A DNA stretch of 64,000 nucleotides from Desulfarculaceae bacterium (GTDB lineage: Bacteria; Desulfobacterota; Desulfarculia; Desulfarculales; Desulfarculaceae): positions 124,001 through 188,000 of the forward strand of contig JAHLKT010000004.1 in the NCBI GenBank assembly GCA_020444545.1, read 5' to 3'. Below, in pieces: positions 11,235-21,376 of the stretch (the stretch's first letter is position 1; each line of letters begins with the position of its first letter). Made by a program: the position numbers and the translations under genes. Under the pieces are notes generated by a model that did not search any database, was not told the origin of the DNA, and was given only the letters and a program-made list of their open reading frames with translations.

Positions 11235-13217
11235 ATGTCTGACCCCATAGGCCACCTGGTCGAATTCATCGAAAAGAACCGCGTGGAGCTGGGCCTGGTT
11301 TTGGCGGCCAAGAAAAACCGCCTCAACCTGCTCACCGTGGCGGGCCGCCAGGCGTCGCTCTCCACCAGCCGGATTCTGTTGATGTCCCCGGCGGCCATGG
11401 GCCCGGACGCCCCCCGCGCGGCCCAGCAGGAATACCTGCAAAACCTGCAGGAGCGGCGCGAGGAGCTGGCCGCCCAGGTGGACGTGGCCGAGCTGTGGGA
11501 GCTGGTGCACGAGGAGGATGAGCCCCTGCCGCTGAAGGACCTGGCCGAGCTGGCCTTCGGTCCCTCCCTGGATCATGACCAGACCTCGGCCGCCCTCAGG
11601 GCCCTGTTCAACGAGCGCACCCACTTCCGTCTGGCGGGCAACCAGTTCTTGCCCTTCAGCGTGGAGCAGTTGGAGGCCAAGGCCCTGCAAGCCGAGCGCG
11701 AGGCCGAGCGCCAGGCCCAGGTTGACCAGGCGGTTGAGTTCCTCAAGTCCCTGCCCGACAGCGGCCCCTGCCCCGAGCCTCCGGCCGAGCTGGCTGATCA
11801 GCTCCGCGACCTTTTGGTGTTCCAGGAAGACAGCCCCAGCGTCAAGCTGGCCAAGGAGGTGGTGAGCGCGGCGGGCATCGGCGGGCCCAAGGACCTGTTG
11901 GCCTTGCTGGTGCGCCTGGGCGTCCTGCCGCCCCATGCCAACCTGGAGCTGTTGCGCCAGGGATTCAGGGCCGACTTCCCGCCCGAGGTGATGGAGCAGG
12001 CCCTGGCCCTGGACCCGGCCCAGGCCGGGCCGGAGCGCAGCGACCTCACCGGGCTCTACACCTTCACCATCGACGGCGCCTTTACCACCGACTTCGACGA
12101 CGCCCTTTCCTTCGAGCCCGACGACAGCGGCGGAGCCACCCTGGGGGTGCACATCACCGACGCCGGGGCCATCATGCCGCTGACCGGGCCGCTGGAAGAC
12201 GAAGCCCGCGCCCGGGCCACCTCGCTCTATCTGCCCGATGACCGCCTGCCCATGCTGCCCCCGGCCCTCAGCGAGGACCAGCTTTCGCTCAAGCAAGGCC
12301 AGGTACGCCCCGCCCTGTCGGTGCTGGCCCGCCTGGACGCCGAGGGTCGCCTCATCGAGTACCGCCTGGAGCGCAGCGTGATTCAGGTGCACCAGCGCCT
12401 GACCTACGACGAGACCGACGACATGCTCGACAGCGACCGGCGCATGGCCGGGATGCACCGCATGTGTCATGCCCTGCGCTCGCGGCGCATGGAGGCCGGA
12501 GCCTACTTCCTGCCCCTGCCCGAGGTGCTGGTGGGAGTGGACCCGGCCACCCAGGAGGTGTGGGTGCGGCGTATCGACCGCAACGGCCCCAGCCGGGAGA
12601 TGGTGGCCGAGACCGCTATCCTGGGCAACTGGCTCTTTGCCCTGTTTTTGGCCGAGTCCGGGGCCCCGGCCCTGTTCCGCACCCAGGGCAAGCCCTCCGA
12701 GCCCATCGAGGAGCGCGACCCCAGCGACATCTACCATCACTTCAAGCAGCGCCGCCTGCTGAACCGGGTGGACATAACCACCAAGCCCGGCCTGCACTCC
12801 AGCCTGGGCATCCATCCCTACACCCACGCCACCAGCCCCATCCGGCGCTACCTGGATTTGGTGATGCAGCGCCAGATCGGCAGCGTGCTCTGCGGCGGCC
12901 CGCCGCTCTACAGCAAGCAGCAGCTCAAGGAGCTGGCCATGGAGCTGGAGCCCACCGTGCGGCGAGCCATGAAGGTGCGCCAGGCGCGGCAGCGCTACTG
13001 GCTCCTCACCTGGCTCAAGGCCCGCCAGGACCAGGCCCATCCGGCCGTGGTAATGGAGCGCCAGACGCGCCGCTGGCAGATTCTGCTCACCGACATCATG
13101 ATGCTGGTGACCATACCGGCCAACCAGGGCAAGAACCTGGCGCCCGGCATGGAGGTGGAGCTGATGATCGAGCGCATCGACCCCTTTGACGACATCCTCA
13201 GGGTGAAGCTGGCCTAG
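11235..13217 (+). CDS. RNase II/RNB-domain exoribonuclease
   Basis: 660 residues. The RNB catalytic domain occupies roughly 270-560, with the metal-binding aspartates D280, D286, D288 and D289 in the motif TIDGAFTTDFDDAL, matching the D-x5-D-x-DD spacing of E. coli RNase II. The N-terminal 250 residues contain a winged-helix-like region instead of a clear cold-shock pair. The C-terminus is a short beta-rich S1-like region. It degrades single-stranded RNA 3' to 5' in the cytoplasm. It is a lone gene divergent from the TlpA-like gene; its stop lies 3 nt from the stop of the next, convergent gene. Whether it is RNase II or a specialised paralogue cannot be told. Confidence 0.88.
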   Translation: MSDPIGHLVEFIEKNRVELGLVLAAKKNRLNLLTVAGRQASLSTSRILLMSPAAMGPDAPRAAQQEYLQNLQERREELAAQVDVAELWELVHEEDEPLPLKDLAELAFGPSLDHDQTSAALRALFNERTHFRLAGNQFLPFSVEQLEAKALQAEREAERQAQVDQAVEFLKSLPDSGPCPEPPAELADQLRDLLVFQEDSPSVKLAKEVVSAAGIGGPKDLLALLVRLGVLPPHANLELLRQGFRADFPPEVMEQALALDPAQAGPERSDLTGLYTFTIDGAFTTDFDDALSFEPDDSGGATLGVHITDAGAIMPLTGPLEDEARARATSLYLPDDRLPMLPPALSEDQLSLKQGQVRPALSVLARLDAEGRLIEYRLERSVIQVHQRLTYDETDDMLDSDRRMAGMHRMCHALRSRRMEAGAYFLPLPEVLVGVDPATQEVWVRRIDRNGPSREMVAETAILGNWLFALFLAESGAPALFRTQGKPSEPIEERDPSDIYHHFKQRRLLNRVDITTKPGLHSSLGIHPYTHATSPIRRYLDLVMQRQIGSVLCGGPPLYSKQQLKELAMELEPTVRRAMKVRQARQRYWLLTWLKARQDQAHPAVVMERQTRRWQILLTDIMMLVTIPANQGKNLAPGMEVELMIERIDPFDDILRVKLA

Positions 13218-13693: not shown

Positions 13694-14830
13694 TCAGCCT
13701 CCCTTGATGGTTTGCTCGATCATCTCGCGCCAGGCCGGGGCCTGGGCCTGCCAGGTGTAGCTTTCGGCCAGGCGACGCCAGTCCCCGCGCCGCGCCGCCT
13801 GGGGATCAACCGCCAAGTCGCGCAGAGCCGGACGCAGGCCGCCATGGCCGTAGCGCAGCTCTGGAGAATAAAGCTCGGGGTAGACCAGGGCGTCGGGCAC
13901 CAGGGGGCGGCAACCGGCCCACACCGCCTCGGCCACGGACATGCCGAAGTACTCCTGCTGGGCCGTGGAAACCGCCACATCGGCCCAGAACAGCCAGCGC
14001 CAGTATTCGCGCCGATCGTCCACATGACCCCACTGCTTGACGCGCGCGCCCAGGCTCTGCCGCGCGGCCACGAACACGGCGGGCGGCTTGGCCGGGGCGG
14101 GCCCCAGCACGGCCAGCTCAAAGGCCAGGCCCTCGCTGGCCAGCGCGTCCAGGGCCGCGAAAAAGCGCTTCGGGTCCTTGTCTTGGGCCCAGCGGTGGTT
14201 CCACAGGATACGCAGGGGCCCCTCGCGCGGCTCGCGTTCCAGGCCCGCCGCCTCGCCCGGGTCGATGGGCATGGGCAGGGCCGCGCTCTTAGCCGCGATC
14301 TCATCGGCCAAGCCCAGGGGCCGCATGTCGGGCAGGCGAGTTTCCAGCTCGCGGGCGGCAGCCAAAAACTCGTTGCGATGAAACTGGGAGTTGAACACTA
14401 CCCGCCGGGCAGCCTGGGCCGTGGTCAGGTTGCTGAAGGCCAGATACAGGTCGCGCTCTTGCAGCGAGGCTCCGGCCCGGCCAGGCGCGGGATAAGCCAG
14501 CTGGTTCTCGTGGAACACCACTAGGGCAGGCACCGTGGCCAGAGAGGGGACCAGGCCCCGCAGCTCGGCCAGTCCCAGCATGTCCGAGCAAACCAGGCCG
14601 TCCCAGGGCCGGGCCAGCTCTTCAGCCGCCGCGCGGGCCAGGTAGGCCGCCGCGCCGCGCATGCGCCAGCGCCAGTGGCGGCCGGGCAGGCCCAGGGCGC
14701 TCCAGCGGGCGGGCGCGTGGGCCATGAGCCCGCGCATGAAAGCGGCGTGGCTGGCCGTGAGGTAGGGCTCCACAAAAAGCAGGCGCGGGCCTTGTGAGCC
14801 CGCGCGCAGGATGGTCAGGTCCGCTGCCAC
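13694..14830 (-). CDS. DUF3524 GT-B protein, tRNA-queuosine mannosyltransferase-like
   Basis: 378 residues. The N-terminal half carries the DUF3524/QTMAN signatures in order: EPYLTASH (21-28), LPGRHWRWRMRG (48-59), SDMLGLAELRGL (82-93), FHENQLAYP (106-114) and NSQFHRNEF. The C-terminal half is a glycosyltransferase donor domain (NHRWAQDKDP; an EYFG..VAEA retaining-type motif). In animals this family (GTDC1/QTMAN) adds mannose to queuosine of tRNA-Asp; bacterial members are mostly uncharacterised. It starts at GTG, 1 nt after the stop of a GlmU-like gene, in a run with hisH-hisF. The family call is firm; the tRNA substrate is inferred from family only. Confidence 0.8.
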   Translation of the reverse strand: MAADLTILRAGSQGPRLLFVEPYLTASHAAFMRGLMAHAPARWSALGLPGRHWRWRMRGAAAYLARAAAEELARPWDGLVCSDMLGLAELRGLVPSLATVPALVVFHENQLAYPAPGRAGASLQERDLYLAFSNLTTAQAARRVVFNSQFHRNEFLAAARELETRLPDMRPLGLADEIAAKSAALPMPIDPGEAAGLEREPREGPLRILWNHRWAQDKDPKRFFAALDALASEGLAFELAVLGPAPAKPPAVFVAARQSLGARVKQWGHVDDRREYWRWLFWADVAVSTAQQEYFGMSVAEAVWAGCRPLVPDALVYPELYSPELRYGHGGLRPALRDLAVDPQAARRGDWRRLAESYTWQAQAPAWREMIEQTIKGG

Positions 14831-14831
14831 C

Positions 14832-15635
14832 TCAGCGGATCACGCTCTTGGCCTTGTGGAAACCGGCGGGCACGCTGGTGCAGGGGGCCACCAGACTGCC
14901 CCGGCCTAGAACGGTGCCCGGGTTGGTCACGCTGTTGCACCCGGTCTGGCAGTCATCGCCCATGATGGCCCCGAACTTGCGCCGGGCCACGTGATACACC
15001 GTGTCCCCGGCCTTGATGTGATAGGGCCGCTCCACGATCTTGAGGTTGGCCAGCTTGGTGCCCGCGCCCAGGTTTACTTCCCGGCCCAGGATGGAATCGC
15101 CCAGGTAGGCGAAGTGCCCGGCCTTGGCCCCGTCGAGCATCACCGAGTTTTTCATCTCCGTGGTGTGGCCCACCACGCAGCCCACCCCCACCAGACAGGC
15201 TCCGCGCAGATAGGCCCCCTGGCGCACCTCGGTGCCCGGCCCGATGTAGGTGGGGCCCTTGAGTAGCGCGCCGGGTTCCACCACCGCGCCCGGAGCGATG
15301 TGCACCTGATCGTCCATGAACACCGCGCCCGCATAGACCACGGTGGCGTCCTCCACCTCGCGGTCTCCCAGGAGCACCCGCATCTGGCCTTTGGTGGGGT
15401 CCCCGCCCAGTAGCTTGAAGTCGCTGTCGAACACCCGGCCGTGATGCAAGACCACGGTGCGGGGCACCGTCTCGCCGCTGCCGCGCAGCAGGGCCCCGGT
15501 GCGGCCCGCGTCGTCCACCAGGGCGGCGGCATAGGCCTTGATCTTGTCCAGCGCCTCCCACACCGCCTCGGCTCCCTGGAACAGATCGGCGAAGGTGGCC
15601 CCGTCCAAAGCGAACAGGTCTGACGCGGATACCAT
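14832..15635 (-). CDS. GlmU-like left-handed beta-helix protein (acyltransferase-type)
   Basis: 267 residues. From about residue 85 on, hexapeptide repeats form a left-handed beta-helix, with a GlmU C-domain-like segment GHTTEMKNSVMLDGAKAGHF and later LGAGTKLANLKI. The N-terminal 80 residues are short and helical and cannot hold a nucleotidyltransferase domain, so it differs from bifunctional GlmU. Proteins like this are annotated as glucosamine-1-phosphate N-acetyltransferase or UDP-GlcNAc pyrophosphorylase-related. The substrate is unproven. It lies between hisF (9 nt) and the DUF3524 glycosyltransferase (1 nt) in an apparent operon, so a sugar-nucleotide role is plausible. Confidence 0.75.
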   Translation of the reverse strand: MVSASDLFALDGATFADLFQGAEAVWEALDKIKAYAAALVDDAGRTGALLRGSGETVPRTVVLHHGRVFDSDFKLLGGDPTKGQMRVLLGDREVEDATVVYAGAVFMDDQVHIAPGAVVEPGALLKGPTYIGPGTEVRQGAYLRGACLVGVGCVVGHTTEMKNSVMLDGAKAGHFAYLGDSILGREVNLGAGTKLANLKIVERPYHIKAGDTVYHVARRKFGAIMGDDCQTGCNSVTNPGTVLGRGSLVAPCTSVPAGFHKAKSVIR

Positions 15636-19477: not shown

Positions 19478-21376
19478 TTAATCCCGGGCCCCGGCCTGCT
19501 CCCGGCGGTGCAAGACCAGCTGCAACACGGCCAGGGCCGCCGGGGTCACCCCGGATATGCGCGCCGCCTGGCCCAGGGAGGCGGGGCGCACCTGGCTGAG
19601 CTTCTGCTTCACCTCGTGGCTCAGGCCCTCGATGTCCTGGTAGTCCAGGTCCGGTGGCAGGGCCACCGCCTCCTTAGCCCGGAAGCGCTCCACCTGATCC
19701 CGCTCGCGCTGCTCATAGCCCGCGTACACCGTCTTGATATGGACCTGCTCGGCCGCGTCGGCCGGCAGGGCGGCCAGCTCCTCCAGGGCCGGGTGCAGGG
19801 TGGCCAAGGAGGCCAGGTCCATGCCCGGCCGCCGCAACACGTCCCCGGCCGGATGGGGCCGCCTGAGCGGCGCGCTGCCCAGGGCCTGCAAGCGGTCGTT
19901 GGTTTCGCCGGTGGGGTTGAGGCGCACCTCGGCCAGAAGGGCCAGGGCCCGCTCCACCGCGGCCCGCTTGACGCTGAAAGAGGCCCAGCGCGCGTCGTCC
20001 ACCAGGCCCAGCTCGCGGCCCAGGGGGGTCAGGCGCAGGTCCGCGTTGTCCTCGCGCAGGGTCAGGCGGAACTCGGCCCGCGAGGTGAACATGCGGTAAG
20101 GCTCCTTGGTGCCCTTGGTCACCAAGTCGTCGATCAAGACCCCGATGTAGGCCGAGGAGCGGTCCAGCACCAGGGGCTCCTCGCCCCGCGCCCCACGGGC
20201 GGCGTTAATGCCCGCCCACAGGCCCTGGGCCCCGGCCTCCTCGTAGCCGCTGGTGCCGTTGATCTGTCCGGCCAGGAACAGCCCGGCCAGGAGCTTGCTC
20301 TCCAGCCAGGGGGTCAGTTCGCGGGGATCGGAGTAGTCGTACTCGATGGCATATCCCGGCCGGGCGATCACCGCCCGCTCGCAGCCGGGCAGGGTGCGCA
20401 CCATCTGGGCCTGCACCTCGGCCGGCAGGCTGGTGGGGATGCCGTTGGGATAGAACAGCGGCGAGTCCAGGCCCTGGGGCTCCAGGAACACCTGGTGCGA
20501 ATCCTTGTCCGGGAAGCGCACCACCTTGTCTTCCAAAGAGGGGCAATAGCGCGCGCCTACCCCGGTGATCACCCCGGCGTACATGGGCGCCTGGTCCAGG
20601 TTGGCTCGGATCAGCTCGTGGGTGGCCTCGGTGGTGTGGCTGAGCCAGCAGGAACGCTGGGGCAACACCGGCTCGCTATTGAGGAAGCTGAACATGCGCG
20701 GGTGCGCGTCGCCGGGCTGCTCGGGCAGGCCAGCCAGGTCCAGGCTGTTGGCCTCCAGGCGCGGCGTGGTGCCGGTCTTGAGCCGCCCCAGGCGCAGGCC
20801 CAGTTCCCGTAGCTGGTCGCTCAGCGCGTCGGCCGGGGGATCGCCAAAGCGCCCGCCGCGCGACTGGTTCAGGCCCACGTGGATCACCCCGCGCAAAAAG
20901 GTGCCCGTGGTGAGCACCACCGCCCGGGCCGCGATCTCCCCTCCCCTGCCCGGCCGGATGCCCGCCACCCGGCCCTGCTCGACCACCAGGCCCTTGACCT
21001 CGTCGTCCAGGAGCCAAAGGTTGGGCTGGGCCGCGCAGACTCGGGCCATGCGCGCGGGGTAGCGGTCGATGTCCACCTGGGCCCGGGAGGACCACACCGC
21101 CGGGCCCTTGCCCTGGTTGAGCAAACGGAACTGGATGCCCGTGGCGTCGGTGTTCAGGCCCATCTCCCCGCCCAGGGCGTCGATCTCCTTGACCAGATGC
21201 CCCTTGGCCAGGCCGCCCACGGCCGGGTTGCAGCTCAGGGCCGCGATGTGCTCCAGGTTGATGGTGGCCAAGAGGCATTTGGCCCCCAGGCGGGCCGCGG
21301 CCAGGGCCGCCTCGCAACCGGCGTGGCCCGCGCCCACCACCACCACGTCGAAGCTATGGGGGAATGGCGCGCTCAA
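19478..21376 (-). CDS. mnmG: MnmG (GidA) tRNA wobble-uridine modification enzyme
   Basis: 632 residues. FAD-binding GAGHAG (15-20), the [12 protein letters not shown] segment with the conserved cysteine, the [13 protein letters not shown] block and the C-terminal YAGYEQRE segment are all characteristic. With MnmE it installs cmnm5U34 in tRNAs. The start is TTG, overlapping the stop of the upstream flavin-reductase-like gene (TTGA), so translation is coupled. MnmE is not in the window. Confidence 0.95.

What the first reader, a model, noticed from the sequence alone, without database searches (positions are those of the whole stretch)
13694..14830. Bacterial QTMAN-like (DUF3524) glycosyltransferase
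All N-terminal family signatures are present (LPGRHWRWRMRG, FHENQLAYP). In animals the family mannosylates queuosine in tRNA-Asp. A bacterial member sitting next to a GlmU-like protein and hisF raises the question of sugar-modified queuosine in an anaerobe.
Basis: partly seen in the sequence, partly recalled or inferred. Interest (0 to 1): 0.6.

Follow-up and report, generated by a model that had tools for sequence, protein, structure and literature searches.

The report
Bacterial relative of tRNA-queuosine mannosyltransferase
This bacterium carries a clear relative of the animal enzyme that adds mannose to the tRNA base queuosine, and its genome holds the genes for the expected substrates, so bacteria may also make sugar-coated queuosine, which the literature I could search reports only from animals.

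Summary
In detail: window 13694-14830 (minus strand, 378 aa) is a member of Pfam PF12038, QTMAN_N (181 bits against a cut-off of 25, whole domain), followed by a GT4-type GT-B donor half with an EX7E motif. It is single-copy in a complete Desulfarculaceae-type genome. The family is widespread but patchy in bacteria (37/247 genomes of its phylum). Of 50 family-positive genomes from many phyla, 48 have queA; in an actinobacterial class 42/43 family-positive genomes have queA against 104/155 of the others (p=6e-6, not corrected for relatedness). Neighbours do not point to queuosine: no que gene lies near any of 80 family loci, and GlmU-like and hisF carry no information on it. The family does not exclude GluQRS. 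Best reading: a retaining glycosyltransferase acting on queuosine in tRNA, probably mannose on tRNA-Asp; acceptor, donor and tRNA are inferred. I found no report of mannosyl-queuosine in bacteria.

The parts
13694..14830 (-). QTMAN-family glycosyltransferase, 378 aa (GTG start at 14830)
14264..14782 (-). QTMAN_N domain (PF12038), residues 17-189; presumed acceptor-side half with S27 H28, W55 R56, H107 E108 Q110 Y113 P114
13871..14227 (-). GT4-like C-terminal donor half (residues 202-320) with R213, K218 and EX7E motif E293-E301
   Evidence: Pfam PF00534/PF13692 below cut-off; invariant columns; fold
14832..15635 (-). 267-aa left-handed beta-helix protein like the C-terminal half of GlmU; it ends one base before the glycosyltransferase start
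   Evidence: same order in L003-L009 and L073
15645..16424 (-). hisF
   Evidence: TIGR00735 353 bits
16414..17061 (-). hisH
   Evidence: TIGR01855 217 bits
13221..13691 (-). PPOX/Nim-like flavin oxidoreductase family protein downstream; a similar-sized gene follows in L003-L006, L009, L010

Best explanation
The gene encodes a GT-B, GT4-type retaining glycosyltransferase of the QTMAN family that adds a sugar, most likely mannose from GDP-mannose, to the cyclopentenediol of queuosine at position 34 of tRNA, most likely tRNA-Asp. Shown: family membership, predicted fold, EX7E motif, single copy, the Tgt/QueA/QueH pathway, tRNA-Asp(GUC), a mannose-1-phosphate guanylyltransferase-like gene, and association with queA across genomes. 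Inferred: that the acceptor is queuosine, that the donor is GDP-mannose, that the tRNA is tRNA-Asp, and any effect on decoding of GAU/GAC.
For: PF12038 at 181 bits over the whole domain. Model of mean pLDDT 91.9; best PDB matches are retaining GT-B enzymes (GlgM, MshA, mannosyltransferase 7qsg, PimA with GDP-Man; TM about 0.63-0.69); profile hits in the PDB include PimA and other GT4 enzymes, over the C-terminal half. Own genome has Tgt, QueA, QueH, tRNA-Asp GUC and an intact 358-aa mannose-1-phosphate guanylyltransferase-like ORF. 48 of 50 family-positive genomes from many phyla have queA; in the actinobacterial class 42/43 against 104/155, p=6e-7 when genomes near 1 Mb are left out. Animal QTMAN makes alpha-linked manQ (PMC12518689, PMC8654956), as expected of a retaining enzyme.
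Against: No tgt, queA, queH or queG-like gene lies within the fetched flanks (up to 6 kb) of any of 80 family loci. Queuosine genes are near universal in this phylum (242/247), so their presence here is weak evidence alone. Four family-positive assemblies lack a queA match (G192, G346, and the genomes of L016 and L019). The family does not exclude GluQRS, the other tRNA-Asp queuosine modifier: 6/37 against 24/210. Identity to a tested animal QTMAN was not measured, only the Pfam profile match.
Confidence: 0.62

Rival explanations
1. It glycosylates queuosine, but with another sugar (for example glucose, galactose or N-acetylglucosamine) or on another GUN tRNA than tRNA-Asp.
For: The C-terminal donor half scores only weakly against general GT4 families and its nearest folds use ADP-, UDP- and GDP-sugars. 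GluQRS and the family coexist in 6 genomes, which is easier if they act on different tRNAs or hydroxyls. The family is deeply divergent in bacteria (31-43% identity outside the close clade).
Against: The only known activity in the family is mannosylation of Q in tRNA-Asp; a GDP-mannose-forming enzyme is present.
Confidence: 0.2
2. It is a GT4 glycosyltransferase of a cell-surface glycan, lipid or small molecule, unrelated to tRNA, and the QTMAN_N name is carried over from the animal members.
For: GT4 is large and functionally mixed; no que gene is a neighbour; one family locus (L012) has a second GT4 gene next to it; a few family-positive assemblies lack queA.
Against: Association with queA; neighbours are mostly housekeeping genes, not glycan clusters, and some are tRNA or rRNA modification genes (mnmG at L014, thiI at L026, pseudouridine synthase at L028); S27 H28 H107 E108 Q110 Y113 P114 in the acceptor half are invariant in 56 sequences.
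Confidence: 0.15
3. It glycosylates free queuine/queuosine or a queuosine precursor (salvage or storage) and not tRNA.
For: Same association with queA; not excluded by any test here.
Against: Bacteria with queA make queuosine on the tRNA itself (established knowledge); the animal enzyme acts on Q-tRNA (PMC12518689).
Confidence: 0.03

Closest known systems
QTMAN (GTDC1), animal tRNA-queuosine alpha-mannosyltransferase
   Same: Whole QTMAN_N domain with its signatures, GT-B fold with a GT4-like C-terminal half, retaining-type motif
   Different: Bacterial, in an organism with its own Q pathway; activity, donor and tRNA untested
GluQRS (YadB), which puts glutamate on Q34 of tRNA-Asp
   Same: Proposed to act on the same nucleoside and tRNA
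   Different: Unrelated protein (aminoacyl-tRNA synthetase paralogue), different group added; not present over cut-off in this genome
QTGAL (B3GNTL1), animal tRNA-Tyr queuosine beta-galactosyltransferase
   Same: Sugar on the cyclopentenediol of Q
   Different: Different transferase gene, beta linkage, homoallylic hydroxyl (PMC11705514, PMC12518689)
PimA and other bacterial GT4 mannosyltransferases
   Same: Fold (TM about 0.64) and donor half
   Different: N-terminal acceptor half unlike in sequence; lipid acceptor

Membership tests
QTMAN family (PF12038) | QTMAN_N domain over the curated cut-off | tested here: met
   181.2 bits against 25, profile 2-168/168
QTMAN family (PF12038) | GT-B fold with GT4-type donor half and EX7E motif | tested here: met
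   pLDDT 91.9 and PDB matches; E293-E301 in the sequence, E301 nearly invariant
QTMAN as tRNA-queuosine mannosyltransferase | Queuosine available on tRNA (Tgt, QueA, QueG or QueH) | tested here: met
   Tgt, QueA, QueH; QueG-like hit only below cut-off
QTMAN as tRNA-queuosine mannosyltransferase | tRNA-Asp with G34 | tested here: met
   ARAGORN tRNA-Asp gtc in L090, loop CTGTCAC
QTMAN as tRNA-queuosine mannosyltransferase | GDP-mannose supply | tested here: inconclusive
   358-aa ORF with TIGR01479 match over 2-364, 301.6 bits, under the cut-off of the two-domain model (372.95), which a one-domain enzyme would hardly reach
QTMAN as tRNA-queuosine mannosyltransferase | Transfers alpha-mannose to the allylic hydroxyl of Q in tRNA-Asp | not testable with these tools
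   needs enzymology or tRNA mass spectrometry
QTMAN as tRNA-queuosine mannosyltransferase | Orthology to the animal enzyme in a tree | not tested
   no animal sequence was available in the collections; only bacterial members were placed

The most novel reading that the evidence does not exclude
Bacteria in many phyla carry a sugar on queuosine in their tRNA, made by QTMAN-family enzymes, so that glycosyl-queuosine is an old bacterial modification and the animal enzyme one branch of it.
Probability: 0.55. Interest if true: 0.7.

Novelty: new member of a known kind. Interest (0 to 1): 0.45.

Why it matters
A 2024 review describes galQ and manQ from vertebrates and glutamyl-Q as known only in bacteria (PMC12710937). 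A widespread bacterial QTMAN family that tracks queA predicts glycosyl-Q in bacteria. One LC-MS run could settle that. It would give simple organisms for studying what the sugar does in decoding, and it bears on what form of Q animals take up from microbes.

Tried and rejected
Searched 80 family loci for tgt, queA, queH or queG-like neighbours: none. Looked for a shared neighbour: only lineage-specific ones. Tested whether the family excludes GluQRS, as two enzymes for one site might: it does not (6/37 against 24/210, p=0.42). The same-phylum queA comparison is uninformative because queA is in 242/247 genomes. phmmer of the single protein against the PDB found nothing; the profile found GT4 donor halves. 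Paper searches for DUF3524 or QTMAN in bacteria found no report.

Full report
What is there. The minus-strand ORF 13694-14830 is 378 aa with a GTG start. NCBIfam gave no match for it. It is the only such gene in its genome (4.38 Mb, 11 contigs, completeness 100).

Anatomy. An alignment with 55 relatives from other loci keeps S27 H28 H107 E108 Q110 Y113 P114 N147 R213 D217 K218 G243 P312 invariant and W55 R56 E301 nearly so. The sequence QEYFGMSVAEA holds an EX7E motif (E293, E301), and R213/K218 are where GT4 enzymes usually hold the donor phosphates (inference). The AlphaFold2 model has mean pLDDT 91.9 and pTM 0.89. Its best PDB matches are GT-B enzymes, nearly all retaining, among them GlgM, MshA, SenB, mannosyltransferase 7qsg and PimA with GDP-mannose, TM mostly about 0.62-0.69. 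The match to PDB sequences by profile falls mainly on the donor half, so the acceptor half is what is special to the family.

Setting. The gene follows, one base apart, a 267-aa left-handed beta-helix protein that resembles only the C-terminal half of GlmU, then hisF and hisH upstream of that. The beta-helix gene precedes the glycosyltransferase in eight of nine close relatives (L003-L009 and L073; in L010 the simple gene finder used here did not call it), so this is a conserved order of the Desulfarculaceae group. Outside that group the neighbours differ: mnmG, thiI, an RluA-type pseudouridine synthase, RNase D, an AI-2E transporter, malate dehydrogenase, alanine racemase and others. No queuosine gene was found within the fetched flanks (up to 6 kb) of 80 loci.

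The genome has Tgt (E 5e-150), QueA (E 7e-113), QueH (200 bits), and a QueG-like hit under the cut-off. A tRNA-Asp with anticodon GUC and loop CTGTCAC is present. A 358-aa mannose-1-phosphate guanylyltransferase-like ORF lies about 57 kb away on the same contig. So none of the parts looked for is missing. GluQRS is absent over its cut-off.

Association across genomes. In the window's phylum PF12038 is in 37 of 247 genomes and QueA in 242, so co-occurrence there says little. In 50 genomes reached through family loci in many phyla, 48 have QueA. In a class of Actinomycetota, where QueA is absent more often, PF12038 is in 43 of 198 and QueA in 146; 42 of the 43 have QueA against 104 of the other 155 (Fisher one-sided p=6e-6; 6e-7 without genomes near 1 Mb). 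The genomes are related to each other and the test takes no account of that, so the p value is a guide only. The four family-positive assemblies without QueA (G192, G346, those of L016 and L019) may be gaps in draft genomes, but I could not show that. The family does not exclude GluQRS, so a simple picture of two enzymes competing for one site in tRNA-Asp is not borne out.

Tree. Seventy-two bacterial members form a deep and patchy tree; the window's protein sits in a fully supported Desulfarculaceae-type clade of ten, and major phyla are mixed outside it. This suits old presence with many losses and some transfer, but binning errors in MAGs could also mix the labels; animals were not included.

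Conclusion. Membership in the QTMAN family is solid. Glycosylation of queuosine is the best-supported function, because a family-wide tie to QueA is hard to explain for a surface-glycan enzyme. Mannose and tRNA-Asp are carried over from the animal enzyme. In the literature held here, manQ and galQ are attributed to vertebrates or animals, and glutamyl-Q is said to be known only in bacteria (PMC12710937); I found no paper on bacterial QTMAN, though the library lacks most subscription journals, and the Pfam family already covers bacterial members.

Noticed in passing
window 19478-21376 (-): mnmG (gidA)-like gene, by its sequence another tRNA wobble-position modification gene, lies 5 kb from the glycosyltransferase; in L014 mnmG is directly upstream of the family gene.
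   Followed up: partly
window 11235-13217 (+): RNase II/R-type exoribonuclease with a double HTH domain, convergent with the operon and kept beside it in relatives; it falls under all NCBIfam cut-offs, so it is a divergent subtype.
   Followed up: no
genomes G316, G332, G380, G391, G405, G407, G420, G428 and others: Some actinobacterial genomes have only a divergent QueA-like protein (about 230-250 bits), and others have it beside a normal QueA; it may be a QueA paralogue with another role.
   Followed up: no
G326:C24:5205-5714: A second PF12038 copy in one actinobacterial genome, with one in-frame TGA.
   Followed up: no
L012:2099-3406: A second, ordinary GT4 glycosyltransferase lies convergent to the family gene; an ORF cluster containing this gene recurs in L023, L029, L041, L068 and L069, but some members may simply be other GT4 proteins.
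   Followed up: partly
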